Shown here: positions 3,973 to 44,990 of the stretch, piece by piece
Position numbering within the stretch: the stretch's first letter is position 1
How the letters are laid out: each line of letters opens with the position of its first letter
Assembly: GCA_947561715.1 (NCBI GenBank)
Contig: OX387205.1
Span: forward strand, 6,453,001-6,517,000
Length of the DNA: 64,000 bases
Source: Ascidia mentula
Lineage: Eukaryota > Chordata > Ascidiacea > Phlebobranchia > Ascidiidae
Reading direction: 5' to 3'
The notes under the pieces: generated by a model
What the model was told of the DNA's origin: nothing
Databases searched by the model: none
Seen by the model: the letters and a program-made list of their open reading frames with translations, nothing else
Program-made: the position numbers and the translations under genes

Positions 3973-4076
3973 AGTATGCCTACGATGCCTACACTCAATG
4001 CCTACGATGCCTAGAATGCTTACAATGCCTACGATGTCAACAATGCCTACGATGCCTACAATGGGTTTTTTAGAGG
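3973..4076. repeat. Minisatellite, GATGCCTAC family
   Basis: Array of about 9-10 bp units reading TGCCTACGA / TGCCTACAA, bounded on the right by CTACAATGGGTTTTTTAGAGG. The same unit, with nearly the same right boundary, makes up the arrays at 34.2-36.1 kb, so this is a smaller copy of that element. The left boundary is unclear. Confidence 0.75.
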
Positions 4077-4293
4077 AACAGAGCGGTTCGACTCTGTAGA
4101 AAATAATGAAAACTGTATTTTATCGCCTTAAATTGTTTAATCACATTCGTTCATTAACGCATTTAACTCATCGCCATCATTGGATTTACTCGAACTGCAT
4201 CATTAAAATTGTATAGTACTCGAAATCTCGAATGCTTTACTAATTTTAATACAACCCAGTAATTACTTATGTGCAAAAAAGCCATATTATTGC

Positions 4294-4348
4294 AAAGCTG
4301 CAGACAGGGTGAGTACACGCACTGTTTCGACCTGTAAGGTCTCATCAA
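4294..4348 (-). ncRNA. Degenerate inverted copy of the hammerhead core
   Basis: Read on the minus strand this arm has TTGATGA, a good stem II (GACC/GGTC, with the usual closing G-C pair), GAAAC, an ACAG/CTGT stem III and TGCAGC. The first core base is T instead of C, and the 5' side of stem I no longer pairs, so it is probably inactive. It shows that the ancestral core had a canonical stem II. Confidence 0.45.
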
Positions 4349-4405
4349 CTCAAAGTGGAGACTAGTGTGCCTGCTAGTGTGAAAGCTAGCACAGTGCCAC
4401 TCAAC

Positions 4406-4465
4406 AGCTGCACTGATGAAACCTTACAGGTCGAAACAGTGCGTGTACACACCCTGTCTGCAGCT
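4406..4465 (+). ncRNA. Hammerhead ribozyme candidate (open at stem I)
   Basis: Stem I is a perfect 7-bp pairing of AGCTGCA (4406-4412) with TGCAGCT (4459-4465). The core CTGATGA is at 4413-4419. Stem II is ACCT/AGGT around a 3-nt loop (4421-4431). GAA is at 4433-4435. Stem III is ACAG (4436-4439) with CTGT (4454-4457), closed by a 14-nt loop. C4458 is at the expected cleavage position, after the A15.1-U16.1 pair. All invariant core bases of the hammerhead fold are present. One flaw is an A-C opposition at the first position of stem II (4420/4432), where the inverted copy next door has G-C. Hammerheads of this topology are known from Penelope-like and other retroelements. Activity is an inference. 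Confidence 0.6.
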
Positions 4466-4752
4466 TTCCAGTAATTACTAATTGCACAGTGTTGGAGTCT
4501 TTTTGGAGTTATAGTTAGGTTTTGTGTTATCACAGAGTAAACATAACATAATTCCTACAACTCTCTGAAAAAAAATATTCTGTTCCTTACTTTGTAGAGT
4601 GTATTTCCTCGGATTCCTTACGTTCGAGTTTTCCTCAGATTCCTTACATTTCTTGTATTGCAGATTGTTTGCCAGAAATTGTTTCTGACTTTTATTTTCT
4701 GAAAATTTCATTATAGGCTACCCTGTTATTTGCCTCTTTATTACAACTGCAG

Positions 4753-10700: not shown

Positions 10701-12438
10701 GTGGACAAGAGGCTGGCCTAACATAAAATCATGAATTAAGGTATACTTATGTGATTCAATTTTAAGCTACATACCCTTGGACATTTTGAAATGACTAGCT
10801 AACTGAGAAGGGCAAAAATGCACTAAAACTGCACCAAACACGCTGAAACAGCCCTGGCAACAGCATGTGCCTTCCTGTTTATTCAACCTTAAATTTGACC
10901 CTAATGCATCACCAGTTGCCTGGTGACGTAACTGAGTTTCTCTGTGACAGAGGAGTACAATACGGGCATTCCCTGTGGGTGAAACTTTTTTAATAGAAAT
11001 ACTGATATGCGGCCTTAAAACAGCACATGGTGAGGTTTTGCACAGGCATACCTGGAAACTGCCATACCTATGGGGGGTACAAACAGTCCTGGGGGGGCCC
11101 AAAAACAGTTGTAAGACATCTAATTTTGAATGCATTGCATAGTGGAGGAGGGTTGGTGACTTTGCTTAATTGCAAATGAATGGTACTTATTGTTACTGTC
11201 ATTTATTTCTTTACAAAACAAACCTACACTTTTTTTCTGTTTTTAGGCCAAAAATAATGTCCAAATGCCCTTGGGGGAGCGGTTAAGGCAGTTGTCTCAC
11301 TAATAATTTTGACCAGAATTTATAGATAAAGGTTGGGACCAACATTAAATCACAAATGGAGTGTACTTCTGATAATATCAAATACTGTCTTTATCATTTC
11401 AATATAATATGCAGGCAATGTGTTTCATGGTTTTCAAGAAGCTCAAATTACGTTCTTGCCAACCTACAAATTTACACCAGGATCTGACAAGTATGATGTT
11501 TCAATGAAACTTCGTGTACCATCATACACTGTAAGTACGATTTTCTCTTATTGTTTTCCATGTTAGCATCTATCACACCACAAGGTCACAGAAAGGGTTG
11601 TGCAATTATTAGTTGATAAATTTACACAGCTTCATTGCATGTGTTTTTAAGTATAAAGCCCATACATCAATCTTTAACAATATTTTTCCTTACTTTTTCT
11701 GACATCAGTATCTATCTAAGTCAGGGATAACCCACTTTAGTAGAGTATTGACTGCAATGCTACAAAACCTTATGATATGTTAGGGTTTCTATCGATCTAA
11801 AACTGAAATTATGTATTTAACATTGTTGGCGCTAAATCAAATTTGAAAAGGAGGATGTCCAGTCACAGAAAAATATTTCTTAGAAGTACAAAGTAAGGAC
11901 AAAACTTAGAAATATATCTAAGCTTTCCAGTATTTTGCCTGATGTTGAATGAATTTGTTTTGCAACTTCTTACTGTTTGTCTGTGTCCTTTGGTAATTAG
12001 AAATTGAATATGACCCCACTACTCCATATACAAAAAATAATTTACCTGTGACATTAACGAGTTTTATACACATTTACATGAAGATTACAACTACCTGTTC
12101 ATTATTTAAGGCTTTTTTTTGGCAGGACCGTGTCTTACACAAATCTGGTAAATCTACAGTTGTAAAATGTTGCTGCTATAACACTGCTAGCACTGTGAAA
12201 CAATCGGATCACCGGCCAGTGTATGGCTTGTTTGAAGTTGGCCTAAAACCAGGCCGTAACAAGTAAGTTTTATGTTCGAACCAGACCTTAATCGCAACTA
12301 ACATTTTTAAAATGAAACAGTGCTCCAATGGGGAAAATTGGCTTCAATCATGAAGTATACATGGCTGCGGCAAAAAAAAGAGCAAACTGTACAAGTGTAG
12401 CACAAGCACAACAAAGCTCTGTCTGTGTGCTGCTGTAA
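4753..12438 (+). CDS. INPP5E: INPP5E-type inositol polyphosphate 5-phosphatase (5' end unresolved)
   Basis: Removes the 5-phosphate from phosphoinositides such as PI(4,5)P2 and PI(3,4,5)P3; the vertebrate enzyme acts at the primary cilium. Exons: 4753-4895 (tentative, serine-rich), 6292-6386, 6820-6940, 8456-8580, 8646-8765, 8961-9078, 10114-10259, 11415-11530, 12126-12262 and 12321-12438. All phases match and the sum is 413 codons including stop. Catalytic signatures in order: [60 protein letters not shown] (split by an intron) and [10 protein letters not shown]. The protein ends in CVLL, a CaaX prenylation box in the same place as in vertebrate INPP5E. The proline-rich N-terminus of the family was not found; it is probably encoded upstream in exons I could not recognise. 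Several introns carry MITEs. Family assignment is firm; the first listed exon is less certain. Confidence 0.9.
5516..5776 (+). other. Open frame inside an INPP5E intron, function unknown
   Basis: An 86-codon frame, basic in its middle, ending in CLDC before a stop. It lies in the intron between the first two listed INPP5E exons, whose phases join correctly without it. No family was recognised and no splice sites support it, so it may be chance, a lost exon or an alternative end. Confidence 0.15.
7178..7573. mobile_element. hAT-type MITE, CCGGATCC family, copy 1
   Basis: A 396-bp non-coding element with ends TAGTGTTG and CATCACTA and subterminal CCGGATCCGG-rich inverted blocks. It is flanked by 8-bp sequences ATTAACAG (7170-7177) and ATCAACAG (7574-7581), matching at 7 of 8 positions, as expected for a hAT target duplication. 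It sits in an INPP5E intron. A second, older copy is at 16606-17097. Confidence 0.85.
7985..8179. mobile_element. hAT-type MITE, CAGTGTTTCCCAACC family, copy 1
   Basis: A 195-bp element with ends CAGTGTTTCCCAACC and GGTTGGAAATCACTG and a perfect 8-bp target duplication TAATAAAG at 7977-7984 and 8180-8187. Intronic in INPP5E. Related copies lie at 58439-58649 and 60675-60895. Confidence 0.9.
9623..9954. mobile_element. hAT-like MITE with TAGTGATGTAC ends
   Basis: The left end TAGTGATGTACCGAA and the right end, complementary to CTGTGATGTACTGAA, form imperfect inverted repeats around a non-coding 330-bp body that also contains the word TTCGGCCGA. No clear 8-bp target duplication was found, so the exact ends are uncertain. 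It lies in an INPP5E intron. Confidence 0.55.
10440..11345. repeat. Dispersed non-coding repeat, copy 1
   Basis: Sequence with runs such as CCCTGGGGGGG, recurrent GATAAAGGTTGG(G) words, and a stretch around 10.8-11.0 kb that matches 59.88-60.08 kb at many positions (CAACAGCA followed by a TAAATTT segment, a CACC/TGGTGA segment and GGGCATT). The body appears internally duplicated (10.48, 10.66 and 11.28 kb). The minus-strand frame at 10767-11135 has no recognisable domain. Intronic in INPP5E. Class unknown. Confidence 0.55.
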
Positions 12439-26781: not shown

Positions 26782-27055
26782 TACTAAATAGGAGATTGGT
26801 GTCGCTGATTAGTAAACAATGCCAACCAGAGGGCTAGATTCGGAAAAAAACTAAGGGAACAGTATTGTTTGCTGTTTATGTAGAAACAAATTGTTGACTT
26901 TTGTTTGTCTGAAAATATATTTAAATCCAAAATATTTTAATTGGATAAGTCCCCTACAAAAAAGAAAACATTTGTTGCGACACCACGTGGAAATAGGCAC
27001 ATTCGCAGCGTTCCCTGTGTGTACGTCCTTTTCGATTTTTGAGGTTCAGGTTGAG

Positions 27056-28736
27056 ATGGTAAGTAATCGAAAGAAATCTTCTCCATGTTCGAACGAAGAT
27101 GTTTTTTTATTTTACGGTGTACAAATATTGTTACACATCTTTAATCGTACTTTATGTGTACATTTTAAGGCTAAGATCAAGGCCAGAGAATTGAGGGGGA
27201 AGTCAAAAGAGGAGTTGTTAAAACAGCTCAATGACTTCAAGCAAGAACTGTCCAATCTTCGTGTAGCAAAAGTCACTGGTGGAGCTGCATCTAAGCTCTC
27301 TAAAATGTAAGTTTTGTATAACCTGCAAGCTGAAGAGGGTTGGTGTTTCATAATTTGTCCGGTGTTTGTGTGTACCGTTTTGGCTGAAAATGCATTGATT
27401 GCATTGGTTTAGATAAAAGTTCTTTGACAAAAAGCTGTAGCACAGAGGAAAATCCTTTTTAGTTGAAACAGAACTTGTCAAAAATACAAGTATATACCAA
27501 GCACCAAAAGGAACATTTTTATGTAGTTGAAGAAAAAACGTTGGGGACGGTAAAACTTCTGGCAGCTACTGTGCACTTTTTCAGTGGCGATTATGTCTTG
27601 ATTGTATGGCAAAAAACCCAGCAGATGAACATTTTAACTTATCTAATATGGTTCTTTTTAAGTGTGTACAACTAAAAGAAATTTTATGATCTTTAGCATG
27701 ACATTCTAAACTGATAGAGAGAATTAGGACACATTGTCATATAAGTTGTTTTGTAGCTGTCAGATGTCCTAGTTAGTTTTTTGCTTTGCCAAAAACTACA
27801 TATTTAAAGTTGATCTACACACTCTTATCCAAACCAATGCATTTTCAACTAATCTTTACCTTCAGCATTGTTACATCAGACACATTGATAACGTGAAGGC
27901 AAAACCATGAATTGAGTAACTATGTTCATCCATGGAAAAAAATAATTAATTCTTGTTGCAAACTCATACCTATATACAAAAAGCGTTTGCTGGTGCCCAT
28001 CAAAGATTTAAAAAAAATGTTCTGTGTAAATTACAAACTTTCTAATATAGATTTCATTAGTTCAAAACTTGATTACCAACTGTTATCTGAATCCTGTTTC
28101 ATTTCTCTGTCCTATTAGAAATATTTTTTGGAAAAAGCATTACCATAAAAAAAAATTTGTTGTCTAGGGCAGTAATTTAAAAAAAAATCATCCTTATTTG
28201 AGATTATTGACTTGTAATTTCGTTCCATAAAAATCCATTTCTTATCTTTCTTTTTGGTTGCGTTGGCATTTGTTTTAACATAGCATTTTTTTTTCAATTT
28301 AGCCATATTCTTGTATGTAAACAAACATTTTTTTTGCAGTTGTCTTGTTCGAAAGAGTGTAGCTAGGGTTCTGACTGTGATCAATCAAACCCAAAAAGAC
28401 AATCTAAGAAAACTTTTTAAGGTACGTTGTGTTTAATATTTTTTTTTTTAAATCCGGCTCAGTTTATGATGGTATACTTGTCCTTGACACATGGAATCTT
28501 GCAAATTTTTGACCTTATGGGTTTACATTTTCAGGATCCTGATATGTGTTGCTTATTTCTCAATAACGGTTTGAACAAATTTTTAGGGCAAGAAACATAA
28601 ACCAAAGGACCTTCGTCCAAAGAAGACCAGAGCTATGCGCAGAATGTTCACCAAACATGAAGCAGGCATTCGGTCTGCAAAGTTTCTTCGTAAACAAAGG
28701 CTTTATCCTGCTAGGGTGTATTCAATAAAAGCCTAA
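27056..28736 (+). CDS. RPL35: 60S ribosomal protein L35
   Basis: Structural protein uL29 of the large cytosolic ribosomal subunit, located near the polypeptide exit tunnel. Four exons: 27056-27058 (the ATG codon alone), 27170-27306, 28340-28421 and 28587-28736; 123 residues, the usual family length. The product starts [20 protein letters not shown] and contains [29 protein letters not shown] and [10 protein letters not shown], all family signatures. Exon 1 containing only the start codon is typical of animal ribosomal protein genes. A pyrimidine run, CCTTTTTC, about 28 bp before the ATG could be the TOP element. An AATAAA overlaps the stop-proximal end at 28736-28741. The assignment is certain. 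Confidence 0.98.
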
Positions 28737-33479: not shown

Positions 33480-34183
33480 CATGTTCGTCTTGCAGTTCAA
33501 TTATTGTCAACTTCGGAAGTGCACGAAGTGAACTTTTCTTGGAAGATAACCTAAATATTAAATTCTGCTGGTTGAATAAATTAAAAAGAAGTTGGAAAAC
33601 TCCACTATTAAATACAAAACATTGTTCAAAAACTAATTTATTCATTTGTTTAAGAAAAAAAGATAATACTCTTCTCTAATAATGTTCTTGATCAACTTAT
33701 TTACAAATATGTATAAAAAGAGATATGGCCCTTTCCTTGTTGTAGCAATCATAACATTTTGAAATTATCAAACAGTGTGCTCTTATAGACACTGATGATG
33801 CTTTTAACGAAGCGAAATATATATGTCTAATTAAAGAAGACTGAAAGATTTTAACCTGAAACGAAAGTTTCCTAGACAGTTGTTAATTATTTTGCATTGT
33901 AACAAAGTATTTCTTGAGTTGAATGGATATATTATTGGAAATTAGCAGCACAGAGGCACAAATAAACGTTGTTAACAGTTTTTTCTGTAATCTCCCCTTT
34001 GCAGCTGCATGCATTTGTTGTGAAATGTTTCATAGTGCATTATGCAGTAGGCATAGAATTTCAATCAGTATCGGTGTGAATTACCATTCTAAACTGACCA
34101 GAACCTCTAAGATAACACAAAACTCACATATAAACGCACCGCTTTAGCGGATCGGATTTGAAAATCATATGACCTCGTTTTGG
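33480..34183. other. 3' flank of the K+ channel gene with a hammerhead-like motif
   Basis: Contains the presumed 3' UTR and, at 33792-33818, CTGATGATGCTT...AAGCGAAAT, homologous with flanks to 16312-16336. No gene was recognised. Confidence 0.45.
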
Positions 34184-34508
34184 GGTGCCTCTAAAATGCC
34201 ATTGTAGGCATTGAGCCTAGGCATTGATCCTAAGTATTGTAGGCACAGTAGGCATTGAGCTTAGGTATTGTAGGCATTCTGCACATTCAGTCTAGGCATT
34301 CTAGGCATTGAGTCTTGGAATTGTACGCATTGAGTCTAGGCATCGTAGACATTGAGTTTAGGCATTGTAGACACGTCACACGAGTCTCGGCTTTGTTAGC
34401 ATTTAGTCTGGGTTTTGTAGGCATTGAACACATTGAGCCTTGGAATTGTACGCATTGAGTCTAGTCATCGTAGGCATTGATTCTATAGGCATTGTACATT
34501 GTCTAGGC

Positions 34509-34935
34509 CAGGGTTTCCCAAACTTTTTTGGCCGCGGACCCCATTTTGTATAACTGTTTTTTCTCGGACCCCCTGTCTTACGTCACATTGCATTGTAATC
34601 AGCGTTGAAAATACTACAAACAATATCAACAATAACGAATATCAAAATAGCTATAAGTGTGAATTCTTTAGACGCGTTGTAAAAGAAACGATAGAAAGAA
34701 ATAATTGTAAACAACTTTGAAATCGTAAGATACAACTATAGTGTAAAAACCATTCAAAAGTGTTTTGTGCAATGAGTAATTGTGCAATGCACATATTGTT
34801 AAGCTTACAAAACCAATCCAGCTATGAATTACTGCAGTGATTACTGCTTACACACTGTATAAAACGTACTAATAGTTTTTTGAGGTATCATTACGGACCC
34901 CCAGGGGTCCGCGGACCCCAGTTTGGGAACCCCTG
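34509..34935. mobile_element. hAT-type MITE, CAGGGTTTCCCAAAC family
   Basis: A 427-bp element with ends CAGGGTTTCCCAAAC and GTTTGGGAACCCCTG and subterminal GCGGACCCC repeats. A perfect 8-bp target duplication GTCTAGGC lies at 34501-34508 and 34936-34943. Non-coding. Confidence 0.95.
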
Positions 34936-35129
34936 GTCTAGGCATTGAGTCTTGGAATTGTACGCATTGGGTCTAGGCATTGTAGGCATGGCATATAGTC
35001 TACAGGCATTGTACACATGGAGTTTAGGCATTGTAGGCATTGAGTCTTGGAATTGTACGCATTGAGTCTAGGCATAATTTAAGCATTAAGTCTATAGGCA
35101 TTGTACGCATAGAGTCTAGGCATTGCAGG

Positions 35130-35817
35130 CATAGGCGCCAAGATTTCATAACAGCCAGGGGGGCGGTCCCATTGTGAGGTCACAACAATAATCATATTTC
35201 GGGGTTCTAATTTTCGGGAAAAATTCCTCTATTTTTCGCTATTATAGTACGGCAAATTGGGGGTCGAGCTCAACAAATTACGAACGTCCGTGTTTACGAT
35301 AATGAAAACAGACACAAACATGAACGGTGGTTTGCGAATTCGCATTACATTATGGAAAACTTAAATGCGAGATTTTTCGGCAATGCATGTACCGTACGTT
35401 TGGACGAAAAGGCTTGCAAAAACATGGTGCTAAAATGGATTAATTGTGCGTTAATGTGGTCAAGATAACATATAAAAAATTACATGATGTAGCCCAGTAA
35501 GCCTCTGCACATTGGCGCAATGTGTTTGAACACGAAAGTATTTTTATTTTTTATTCCGCAGCGCAAAAAATGGTTTACACTGAGAAAAGCGCATGCTATT
35601 GCAACTGCGAGACCACTTTTTTCCCAGTCTCTTAAAGTTGAGCAAATAAAAATGGCACTTGTTTGGTAACAATGCAACATGTTTGGCAACAATGGCAAAC
35701 TTTAGGACGACGATCTGATGCACTCGTACCAAGCGCGTCAGCGTGATGCAGCGTAAAATTGCAATTGTGACCAAAAAACTGAAAATTTGCCCCCCCCCCC
35801 TGGACTTGACGCCTCTG
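35130..35817. mobile_element. hAT-type element, GGCGCC family, copy 2
   Basis: A 688-bp insertion with ends CATAGGCGCCAAG and CTTGACGCCTCTG, GGGGGG/CCCCCC tracts inside both ends, and a perfect 8-bp target duplication ATTGCAGG at 35122-35129 and 35818-35825. No transposase was recognised. Confidence 0.92.
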
Positions 35818-36183
35818 ATTGCAGGCATTGAGTCTAGGCATGGTAGGCATTGAGCTTAGGCATTGTAGGCGTTGAGTCTAGGAATCGTAGGCATTGAGTC
35901 TCGGCATTGTAGGCGTTGAGTCTAGGCATTGTAGGTGTCGTAGGCATTGAGCCTAGGCGTTGTGGGCATAATATGCTGAGTCGATGCCTAGACTCAATGC
36001 CTTCGATGCCTAGACTCAATCCCTACAATGCCTACGATGCCTAGACTTAATGCCTACGATGCCTACAATGGGTTTTTAGAGGGACCTCTCGCTTCGAGAT
36101 TGATTGAGTGTAGGATCAGATTTGAGCATGTAAATGGGGTTACTGTTATAAAACCCAATGGAATACTTTATTAATTTGTTTTT

Positions 36184-40640: not shown

Positions 40641-43600
40641 TCCTCCCCCCGAAAATTGGGCATTGTACCAATTTTACATCGACGCAAAGATTCACAACTC
40701 AGTCTCATTCTCCTGCGCGGGGATCACCAAGCAGAGTTTAGTGATGGGTCTCCTGAGGAAACCGCCGGCCGTCTTCACTGCAACGCTCCTCACCACCTGG
40801 TGTTTATCATGGAATAGTTCGGTGACTTTTCCAAGAGGCCATCGACATCGTGGAGCAGAATCATCGACGAGTAGCACAACATCACCTTTGGAAAAATTAC
40901 TTCTCCTGGTGTGCCATTTTTGTCTGGAGATGATTTCGCGAAAATATAGGAAAGTTCTTGCTGTCGGTGTGCAAACTCTGTAGCACGATGGATGAGTCAG
41001 TCCCAAACAGACAAGGACAGTCTTCTAAATCAAGTTCCTCCGTCACTGTTCGTGACAATTTTACTGCATCCAAAGCAGCCTCCAGTTCCAGTCGTGGTAT
41101 GGTTTGCCTTCCCGAACCGGAAAGCAGTGATTTGCCCATCACCAGAGAGCACGTAACGTTCGAGCGGTCATCTACTGACCTCAGGTAACAAGCACAACCT
41201 CGTGCTTCTGACGAAGCGTCAGCAAAAACATGTAACTGTACTTTGGACGCATTGGTGGTCATTCGATAAAAACGAGGTATTCTTACCTCACAAAGGTCAC
41301 AGAGGCTTTCTCGCCATTTTCGCCACCTGGCTTGATCCGTGGTCGGCACGACATCGTCCCATCCAATCTTCTGTTGACACACGTCCCTGTAGATCAATCT
41401 GGCTTCTAGGACCACGGGTGCAACGAGTCCAAGGGGGTCAAACAGGGAGTTTGTCACGGAGAGCATTCCACGTCGCGTAATCGGTTTGTCCGGCAGGACG
41501 ACATTAAATCCAAACTCGTCCACCGGCAGACGCCAGCTGATTCCCAGAACACGTTCCTGTACCTCTCCGCCAAGAGGAATGTTCTGGATTAGTTTGGACC
41601 TTTCTCCGTTAGGAACAGAGGTCATCACAGCATCACTCGATGACAACCATTTTGTCAGCCTGAAACCTCCCATGGACAGTAGACTTCTCAAATTTTCCAC
41701 CATTTTAATTCCCATTGTTTCTGTGGGGATTGATAATAAACAATCGTCCACATAAAAGTTTTTTCTCACAACCTCGGCAACACGAGGATCAAAAAACTTC
41801 CCAAATTCACGTGCGGTTTCACGTAGGCAGAATGTGGCGCAGCTTGGGGACGACTTCGCGCCAAATAAATGAACAGTCATTCGGTGAGGCACAGGATCCT
41901 TCAGTGTGTCGCCTCCTGGCCACCACAAGAATCTAAAGGCGTCACGATCCGGCTGCGTGACGCGTACTTGATGGAACATGGCTTCTATGTCCGCAACCAA
42001 AGCCACGGCTTCTTTGCGGAATCTCAGAAGCACTCCAACTAACGAGTTCATGAAGTCTGGTCCTTTCATCAAGTGATCGTTGATAGAGTTACCGTCGCAC
42101 TTTGCGGCACAGTCAAAAACGATTCGAAGCTTATCCGGCTTCTTTGGGTTTACCACGGGTGGTGAGGAAGGTACCACTTCCGACCATCAGTACTAATTTC
42201 TTCTTCTGGTACCCGTTCGGCATAACCCTTTTCCAAAAGGATTTGCATCTGCTGAACATACTTTTGACTTAAACTTGCATCACGTGACAAACGCTTCTTA
42301 AGACCAGACAGTCGTTTCTGTGCCAATTTCAAAGTATTGGGAAGAACATCTGCCGAATTTCGCCACAACAGCGGTAACTGGTAATGTCCATCTTTGTGTT
42401 CCACTTGCTTGGCCATGATGTCATATGCAGTGACGTCTTCTGCAGAAAACTTTAATCCAAACTCCATTGCTTCTCTGTTGCTCCGGAGCCACTGAAGGAA
42501 GGATTCAGCATCCCCCAAATCACCACTTCGCATGGGGTAAGTTTCACCATCATCAGTCACGATGACGTCATCGATGTTATTAAAAGAATTGAAACGTTCA
42601 ATTCCTTGCAACAGAAAACTACAGCCCTTGAAGGTTTTCTGTGGAGCATAACCTTTTTGCAACCAACCTAGAGGCGTTTTGACAGCGTCCGGGTACTCCG
42701 GATCAGGAGAGAACCGACTCTCCAAACATCGATGAACTAAGTAGTTGTCTGTACCAATAAGTAATGTGACAGACCCACTGTTGATTTGCGGTAAATGTAC
42801 TCCCTTCAGATGCTTGGGGCGAACAGGTGTTCCAAACTTTGGGACATGCTCAGGCGGGACAGGGATTTCGTCAAGTAACGTCACTTCCGGTAAATTGAAC
42901 TCCTCTCCTCCCATCAAGGGCAGTACTGACATGGAGATTTTCACGGTGTTCAGCTCCTTTGCACCATTGATCGACCCGAGCTGCATACGAACGGGTTCGC
43001 CTTCTACCTCAACATCCAACATGTTGATCAGTCGTTTCTCACAGAAGGTTTTGTCCGAACCAGTGTCCAACAGAGCATATGTTTCAATTTCCTTGTCCCC
43101 GACGCGGACTCGAACAGGAACAATGTCTAACCAAGCGGACAATGAGTTGCTACCATGACAGCCCACGGTATTCAAGCAACTACTCTGCGTCAAAGACGCC
43201 GAGCCATTTCCATTTTAGTCGTCCGAAGATGCGTCCGTCGGTCGAGGTCTCGCCGGATTGTGCAGTAGCACATGATGGTATGCACTTCCACAACCTTCCT
43301 CATGGCAAACCGTCTTACTGCTACAATCGACAACCATGTGTCCCACTTCAAGACACCGGAAGCACAAACCTTTCGCTCTCACCAATTGTCGTCGCTCACG
43401 ATGCGATTTTCGTTTAAACGCATAGCAGACGTCGAGGTCATGCGGCTTTGCACAACAAGGACACGGTTTCTTTCGTTGTGTTGACTGTTGTTCGTTCTGC
43501 ACCGATTTCTGTGCACCAGTAGAAGCAATGGCGTTGTATGACGTCGCCTTTTGTCGCTTGATACCTTGATTCTTTTCGGGGCCCGAAGGAAAGAGACCTT

Positions 43601-44990
43601 TCCCATATATCGAGTTGGCTTTCTCACTCAGCTCTACAACGAAATTCGCAAAATCCACGAAACGCGCGACTCTACCCGTTTCCCTTTGCAATGCAACAGA
43701 TGCAGAAACCCATTTATAACTCCACAGGTAGCTTGCTGGCAATAGCAACAATAAAACCGACGGAATCAACAGTAGACATACCAGTGATTTCCTCCAATGA
43801 TACGCAGCATCTCTTAAGGAGGACGGCTAACTTTTCCAAACCGTCGGGGTCGTTTCGTCCAATCTTCGGACTTTCTTACAACTTCCTTTCGCAGCAACGA
43901 GCGATGATATGTGGTTGACCATAGCGTTCGTACAATTCTTTCCAAGCAAGTTCGTAGCTGACTGCAGGGTTTGAGGATGACGTATGGTGTCTCAGTTTTT
44001 CATTGACACTCGGCGTGCAATGTTGAAGCAAGTACGTAAGTCTTAAATCATCACAGTCTAATCTGCTAGCAATATGAATTTTGTATCGATTTGCAAATGA
44101 CCAATAGTCCATAGGGTCGCCATCAAACTTTGTTATTTGTGGTTTTGGCAGAAAACGTTCACCAACCTCCGTATAATGAGATCTAAACTGTGTCGTAGAG
44201 GTATGTCTGTTATGTGGCGAGTAAATATTATCACGTGGTACCTTTTGGCGACTTGGGTGTTCGAATTCCTTGAACTTTGTTTCATTTGGCTTAGGATCTT
44301 CGATCACTAACTCTTCAGGGTTCTTGGGACACACTGTGTCTTTTCGGGGTTCGTAATTTAACGAACAAACACTCCCAACTTCTTCCCATGCGTTTAGTTC
44401 GGCTTCTGCCAATTCTTACTTCCGTTGAGATTCGCGATCAGCGATTTCAGCCTCCAATTTTCTTTCTTCTTTTCTTTCTTCATCTTGCTTGCGTGCTTAT
44501 CGCGCAAGGTTTAGCTTCACACGACTTTCCTTTAACTTAATACTGTATGTCGAGCTCCTAGAAGATCTTACGCTCCCAGTGTGAATAGTGGATTCGCATC
44601 GTTTCGACGTTCTACTTGGGGGCGGTGAACGGCTACCAGCTTCCGAGACAGGCACCGGTGTTGAAATGTCTCGCAGCCACTGCCTGACGCGAGTGTCAAA
44701 TTCGTTCTTGCCTCGAACACAATCCCTTTTTCGAGACACACTTCCCGGCATCGTGGCCTCATCGGACATATCTTCACATAGGTTCATAGCCTCGGTGTAG
44801 CTTGCTTCTACGGCAAGCAACGCTTCTTGCAGTTTTTCCTTTTCGCGGTTGAGCATTACCCTCTCAGCATCGAGGTAATCATCTTGTAACTGTTTTAATG
44901 CACAGCCAAGCCGTTTTCTCTTCTTCTTTGTCAGGACAGGCATGTTGTGACGTCACAAACGGTTGTAACAATGACAGTTCGAAACTTGTA

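What the first reader, a model, noticed from the sequence alone, without database searches (positions are those of the whole stretch)
4406..4465. A complete hammerhead ribozyme fold in 60 bases
A 7-bp stem I (AGCTGCA/TGCAGCT), the invariant CTGATGA and GAA, a hairpin stem II and a 4-bp stem III ending in T-C at the cleavage position all fall in the right order and spacing. The one defect is A-C at the first stem II position. Known biology: this topology is used by Penelope-like and other retroelements. Inference: it may still self-cleave after base 4458.
Basis: partly seen in the sequence, partly recalled or inferred. Interest (0 to 1): 0.75.

Follow-up and report, generated by a model that had tools for sequence, protein, structure and literature searches.

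The report
Hammerhead retrozyme moved by Penelope machinery
The 60 bases are a slightly damaged hammerhead ribozyme inside one small jumping element of a many-copy family in this animal-like genome, and the way the copies sit in the DNA points to which enzyme moves them, a question that was open.

Summary
It lies in the right arm of a 200-bp inverted-repeat insertion (4268-4467) flanked by perfect 12-bp target duplications. The same genome holds 588 exact copies of the intact 25-nt ribozyme core and 2904 within two mismatches. Longer copies are tandem 291-bp units, as in metazoan non-LTR retrozymes. The window copy itself is probably inactive: stem II is broken and its transcript is predicted to fold as a -121 kcal/mol hairpin.

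Insertion anatomy goes further. Of 23 distinct insertions with a duplication of at least 10 bp and two recognisable ends, 23 are head-to-head and 23 have exactly one tailed and one untailed end. Six of six insertions from three resident Penelope-like (PLE) families, picked because they are head-to-head, have 12-14-bp duplications and exactly one tail. Retrozyme nicks prefer N-T-T (28/48 against 114/960 control). In print the tail is called unique to PLEs. I conclude that a PLE moves these retrozymes in trans, priming from both nicked strands. The partner PLE family is not identified; self-cleavage, circular RNA and mobility are untested.

The parts
4256..4267 (.). Left target-site duplication CCAGTAATTACT
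   Evidence: Exact direct repeat with 4468-4479
4268..4467 (.). Whole insertion: 200-bp head-to-head retrozyme copy
   Evidence: Bounded by the 12-bp repeats; matches unit 167-87 antisense then 24-140 sense
4268..4347 (-). Left arm: antisense partial unit with the tailed end (unit 167 to 87); ribozyme here has TTGATGA and no stem I 5' strand
   Evidence: pattern match on minus strand 4324-4347
4348..4350 (.). Inversion joint between the arms (3 nt in neither alignment)
4351..4467 (+). Right arm: sense partial unit with the untailed end (unit 24 to 140)
   Evidence: 99% identity to the unit
4406..4465 (+). Type I hammerhead ribozyme; predicted cleavage after 4458; A4420-C4432 breaks the first pair of stem II
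   Evidence: Read; family
4468..4479 (.). Right target-site duplication CCAGTAATTACT

Best explanation
The feature is one short, head-to-head copy of a metazoan-type non-LTR retrozyme: a non-coding 291-bp repeat with a type I hammerhead. Shown: the hammerhead family and its copy number, tandem units, target duplications of 11-15 bp, head-to-head arms, exactly one tailed terminus in each two-ended insertion scored, and the same layout in resident PLE insertions. Inferred: transcripts of tandem copies, as circles, multimers or uncut RNA, are used by a PLE protein in trans. Its GIY-YIG endonuclease nicks both target strands about 12 bp apart, each before N-T-T. Each 3' end primes reverse transcription inside the RNA at one of two sites roughly 25 nt apart, one strand at the tail site and the other at the untailed site. 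The two cDNAs are joined at their 5' ends, giving a head-to-head insert. The window copy is a probably dead product of that reaction.
For: Family size: 588 exact cores, 2904 within 2 mismatches, 0 reversed control. Tandem 291-bp units. 23 of 23 distinct two-ended insertions with duplication of at least 10 bp are head-to-head and have one end at unit 159-170 and one at 134-146; chance duplications 4 of 150. One-ended copies with such a duplication use either end: 4 tailed, 5 untailed (L082 left out), so independent choice would give all-mixed pairs with probability about 1e-7 (value). Nick motif N-T-T 28 of 48 against 114 of 960, p 2e-13. Resident PLEs: 134 GIY-YIG matches, close neighbours -+ 19, ++ 5, -- 1, +- 0; six of six insertions read have duplications of 12, 13, 14, 12, 12, 13 bp and one tail. 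Published PLE protein cleaves and extends both strands at AT-rich sites with a 5'-ATT-3' preference and starts at two internal sites that define the tail (PMC11167929).
Against: The six PLE insertions were chosen as -+ neighbours, so their head-to-head layout is by selection (not their tail or duplication). Their nicks show N-T-T in only 1 of 12 (my count), and their tails are longer (32-42 nt against 17-32 nt in the retrozyme), so none of these three families is clearly the partner. Their hammerheads differ in sequence by eye. In vitro the published PLE shows no strand difference in start site, which by itself does not predict one tail per insertion. 32 of 80 rows had no duplication of at least 10 bp, and L022, L037 and L049 could not be classified. 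No RNA or activity data.
Confidence: 0.78

Rival explanations
1. A MITE-like DNA transposon with 62-bp terminal inverted repeats, moved by a transposase; the hammerhead is incidental.
For: The window copy has near-terminal inverted repeats and a duplication.
Against: Termini differ between the two ends and vary by several bases; duplications vary from 11 to 15 bp; many copies are one-ended or tandem; two-ended copies always have one longer end.
Confidence: 0.04
2. Mobilisation by a LINE with occasional twin priming.
For: 5'-truncated one-ended copies with duplications of similar size exist; LINEs were named as candidates in PMC7229834 section 17.
Against: Both outer ends are copies of the 3' region in 23 of 23 two-ended insertions; as I recall, LINE twin priming inverts the 5' part and leaves one 3' end. 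No poly(A) or simple repeat end was seen in the ends printed. LINE copies of this genome were not examined.
Confidence: 0.1
3. Head-to-head copies arise by self-priming on an antisense RNA, as suggested for rotifer Penelope elements (PMC3846280).
For: Head-to-head layout; some joints lie in a palindromic stretch (L016, L081).
Against: Self-priming does not by itself place both outer ends at the two start sites, one each (23 of 23), nor explain the same nick motif on both strands.
Confidence: 0.1
4. The window ribozyme is active in its native transcript and does something at this locus.
For: Core nucleotides and stems I and III are intact.
Against: First stem II pair broken; ribozyme sequestered in a -121 kcal/mol hairpin; no 7-bp-stem internal loop for a loop-loop contact is apparent by eye.
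Confidence: 0.06

Closest known systems
Metazoan non-LTR retrozymes (Cervera and de la Pena 2020, PMC7229834; abstract, passages, sections 13 and 17 seen)
   Same: Type I hammerhead, non-coding tandem unit of 291 bp (published range 150-450), GC 0.474 (published below 0.50), duplications longer than 4 bp, co-resident PLEs
   Different: Most copies read here are head-to-head or one-ended rather than plain tandems; ends carry the PLE tail signature, which the parts of the paper I saw do not mention; circular RNA not tested here
Penelope-like elements (Frangieh 2024, PMC11167929, parts 1-2 of 4 seen; Arkhipova 2013, PMC3846280, passages seen)
   Same: Head-to-head inverted ends, one tailed end, short AT-rich duplications, cleavage preference near ATT, hammerhead next to the start sites
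   Different: No reverse transcriptase or endonuclease; unit of 291 bp; tail 17-32 nt against 32-42 nt in the resident PLEs; start sites 3-39 nt after the hammerhead cleavage site
Schistosoma W elements and SINE-like hammerhead repeats (PMC8490949, passages seen)
   Same: Short repeats bearing hammerheads, some dispersed; a duplication noted for one element
   Different: No PLE-type two-ended insertion in the passages seen
Plant LTR retrozymes (PMC4918200, search listing only; features from PMC7229834 and PMC7761336 passages)
   Same: Non-autonomous hammerhead element
   Different: Plant ones have type III hammerheads, long terminal repeats and 4-bp duplications

Membership tests
Type I hammerhead ribozyme | CUGANGA and GAA core, H at the cleavage site, three stems, open end in stem I (motif and numbering recalled) | tested here: met
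   rows were collected by a pattern that demands the core, so core invariance is partly built in
Type I hammerhead ribozyme | Rfam gathering score | tested here: not met
   Window: none. Genome: none over cut-off for RF00163, 73 of 27659 candidates scored
Type I hammerhead ribozyme | Stem covariation | tested here: inconclusive
   96.1% of cells paired against 16.7-34.0% when slid, but one pair with a double change, and 24 of 500 shuffles reach the percentage (29 of 63 distinct matches aligned)
Type I hammerhead ribozyme | Self-cleavage | not testable with these tools
   Needs a transcript assay
Metazoan non-LTR retrozyme | Type I hammerhead in short tandem repeats of about 150-450 bp | tested here: met
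   291-bp units in tandem in L089 and others
Metazoan non-LTR retrozyme | Low GC (below 50% in the text; a figure legend says below 45%) | tested here: met
   Unit GC 0.474; above the 45% of the legend
Metazoan non-LTR retrozyme | Target duplication longer than 4 bp | tested here: met
   11-15 bp in 24 insertions
Metazoan non-LTR retrozyme | Expressed as linear and circular RNA | not testable with these tools
   No RNA data
Insertion by Penelope-like machinery | Optional tail between two start sites, on one of the inverted ends | tested here: met
   23 of 23 two-ended insertions; resident PLEs 6 of 6
Insertion by Penelope-like machinery | Cleavage preference near 5'-ATT-3' in AT-rich DNA | tested here: met
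   N-T-T after 28 of 48 nicks, control 114 of 960; duplications AT 0.78. Exact cut position relative to ATT in the published assay not compared
Insertion by Penelope-like machinery | Shared target preference with a resident PLE | tested here: not met
   N-T-T at 1 of 12 nicks of six PLE insertions from three families (counted by hand); other PLE families not read
Penelope-like element (autonomous) | Reverse transcriptase and GIY-YIG open reading frame | tested here: not met
   Insertion is 200 bp and unit 291 bp; no GIY-YIG match lies in the window; nearest ORF of at least 100 aa starts at 10767

The most novel reading that the evidence does not exclude
Animal retrozymes are the SINE-like parasites of Penelope-like elements, and their copies record a strict rule: each two-ended insertion uses both internal start sites exactly once, one on each nicked strand. 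This implies a coupled two-subunit complex reading one RNA, and it would replace antisense self-priming as the origin of head-to-head PLE structures.
Probability: 0.55. Interest if true: 0.75.

Novelty: new variant of a known kind. Interest (0 to 1): 0.6.

Why it matters
What moves animal retrozymes has been argued from shared hammerheads, tandem copies and coexistence with PLEs (PMC7229834 section 17; PMC7761336 passages). A family with thousands of core matches turns this into a testable question and gives an in vivo record of how PLEs integrate, including a one-tail rule that the published in vitro PLE system could test directly. In searches of the held library I found no report of the tail signature in retrozymes; most subscription papers and preprints are not covered, and the 2014 paper on PLE hammerheads is not held.

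Tried and rejected
Rfam: nothing above threshold. The MIR6457, MIR156 and uc_338 hits in E-value mode follow the long hairpin of the inverted repeat and lie far below their gathering scores. RF00163 over the genome: 32 weak hits, none over cut-off, and the same search also rings below cut-off in 11 of 14 unrelated control genomes. My first genome pattern was one base too long and found 2 sites. Covariation as proof of the fold was too weak to use. The host looks metazoan from a BEL/Pao element (that these are animal elements is recalled) and PLEs; not tested further. Five more loci, meant as a fresh test of the one-tail rule, turned out to be single-orientation copies and do not test it. One search crashed before its control; one search repeats it with a stricter duplication score and the chance control. 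It was badly formed, and it had said that L089 holds more than two antisense units, which the calls do not bear out; mended here.

Full report
Observation. Alone, the evidence would be modest: no Rfam family reaches its gathering score, E-value mode gives 18.7 bits (E 0.19) for Hammerhead_3, and the 60 bases fold no better than shuffles (z -0.71).

What surrounds it. The motif lies in one arm of a 62-nt inverted repeat (4286-4347 and 4414-4475), inside a 200-bp insertion 4268-4467 flanked by the perfect 12-bp repeat CCAGTAATTACT. The left arm is an antisense partial copy (unit 167 to 87), the right arm a sense copy (unit 24 to 140), with 3 nt between them. The ribozyme of the left arm has TTGATGA and has lost its stem I 5' strand.

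The family. The assembly (195.8 Mb, 79 contigs) gives 117 scored matches to the insertion, several per copy, with only 40 of 1584 first-look candidates scored; 2904 matches to the core within 2 mismatches and none for the reversed control; 588 exact copies with the intact closing pair and 11 with the window's A, this one included. The longest copy read, L089, has about 2.0 antisense units (two hammerheads) and then about 2.6 sense units (three hammerheads), with sense units 291 bp apart. A pattern for the hammerhead found 63 distinct sequences in the loci; four do not look like this family. Variants keep the core and differ in the stem II loop and in stem III. I aligned 29 of the 63: 96.1% of pair cells are standard pairs, but there is little covariation. 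The rows were collected by a pattern that demands the core, so core invariance is partly built in.

This copy is probably dead. Its first stem II pair is broken; that this pair matters for activity is recalled. The whole insertion folds as one hairpin at -121 kcal/mol (z -13.7, 0 of 200 shuffles as good), leaving no free ribozyme. A 291-nt unit folds at -103.5 kcal/mol, with stems II and III but not stem I of the hammerhead in the minimum-energy structure.

Insertion anatomy. I examined 80 loci: 50 taken without regard to structure from the start of the exact-pattern list on one contig (L033-L062, L073-L092) and the 30 best DNA hits (L003-L032). In the 50, 24 had no duplication of at least 10 bp, 6 repeated another row, and 20 were distinct: 10 two-ended, 8 with one recognisable end, 2 unclassified (L037, L049). 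In the 30, 8 had none, 4 repeated, 17 were two-ended and 1 was unclassified (L022). Three of these repeat rows of the first set, so the combined set has 24 two-ended rows, or 23 when L007 is counted with L005. All 23 are head-to-head with 3' ends outward, and all have exactly one end at unit 159-170 (tailed) and one at 134-146 (untailed). Three more with 8-bp duplications (L036, L011, L019) follow the rule but fall below the cut-off. L082, scored as one-ended, has a short antisense tail on inspection. The chance control gave a duplication of at least 10 bp in 4 of 150 trials. One-ended copies with such a duplication, L082 left out, are tailed in 4 (L055, L062, L074, L112) and untailed in 5 (L076, L085, L086, L087, L109), so the two end types are about equally common and independent choice would rarely give 23 mixed pairs (2 to the power -23 is 1.2e-7). 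The two ends of one insertion differ by 17-32 nt (from; L004).

Target sites. For 24 insertions (the 23 plus L082) the duplication is 12 bp in 12, 13 in 6, 14 in 3, 11 in 2 and 15 in 1, AT 0.78. After the nicks, T stands at +2 and at +3 in 36 of 48 each; N-T-T in 28 of 48 against 114 of 960 at shifted positions, p 2e-13.

Resident Penelope-like elements. The genome has at least 134 GIY-YIG matches at E up to 0.01 (150 of 382 candidates scored), several in open frames of about 800-890 aa. Neighbours within 6 kb are ordered -+ 19 times, ++ 5, -- once, +- never. I read the ends of six -+ pairs from three families: duplications of 12, 13, 14, 12, 12 and 13 bp, and one end longer by 32-42 nt in six of six. 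In two pairs a longer 14-nt direct repeat lies inside both arms and was set aside. Three PLE junctions read carry hammerhead-like motifs of their own, which by eye differ from the retrozyme's. The nicks of the six insertions show N-T-T in 1 of 12 (counted). So the partner is not clearly among these three families, or six insertions are too few.

Interpretation. [quoted passage not shown] it showed no difference in start site between strands (PMC11167929, parts 1-2 of 4). An earlier paper describes the tail as optional on one of the inverted terminal repeats and suggests antisense self-priming for head-to-head forms (PMC3846280, passages). The retrozyme copies carry this signature with a strict one-tail rule. 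Their ends lie 3-15 or 28-39 nt past the predicted cleavage point at unit 131, so the template must span that point: a circle, a multimer or an uncut transcript. Coupled priming by a two-subunit complex, and joining of the two cDNAs at their 5' ends, are inference.

Membership and novelty. The family fits the metazoan non-LTR retrozymes (PMC7229834: abstract, passages, sections 13 and 17) on unit size, hammerhead type, GC below 50% and duplication size; circular RNA is untested. Mobilisation by PLEs was proposed there and in PMC7761336 (passages) from shared hammerheads, tandem copies and coexistence. I found no report of the tail signature in retrozymes in the held library, which lacks most subscription papers.

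Noticed in passing
window 33782-33837 (+); L074 2770-2826 (+) and 1001-1056 (-): A second hammerhead-like motif (CTGATGA, short stem II, GAAA, TGTC) in a different repeat family, with one extra base before stem II; Rfam gives nothing at E up to 5.
   Followed up: partly
window about 40900-44943 (-): Broken BEL/Pao-type retrotransposon: Peptidase_A17 (E 2.6e-40), weak reverse transcriptase, aspartyl protease and zinc knuckle matches in separate frames.
   Followed up: no
L024 2565, 2850, 3135 (+): Hammerhead matches spaced 285 bp that share only the ribozyme part with this family: probably a second retrozyme family in tandem.
   Followed up: no
L093, L099, L107 (PLE ends): In three PLE families a predicted hairpin encloses the untailed start site, with the tail end beyond it; a possible protein-binding element. 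The retrozyme has no clear equivalent.
   Followed up: partly
window 3976-4063 and 34205-36070: Degenerate tandem repeats of 9, 22 and 31 bp around GCATTGAG/GCCTACA words on both sides of the window.
   Followed up: no
window 26891-27310 (+): Open frame whose end matches ribosomal protein L29 (E 4.4e-10), possibly an exon of that gene or a pseudogene.
   Followed up: no
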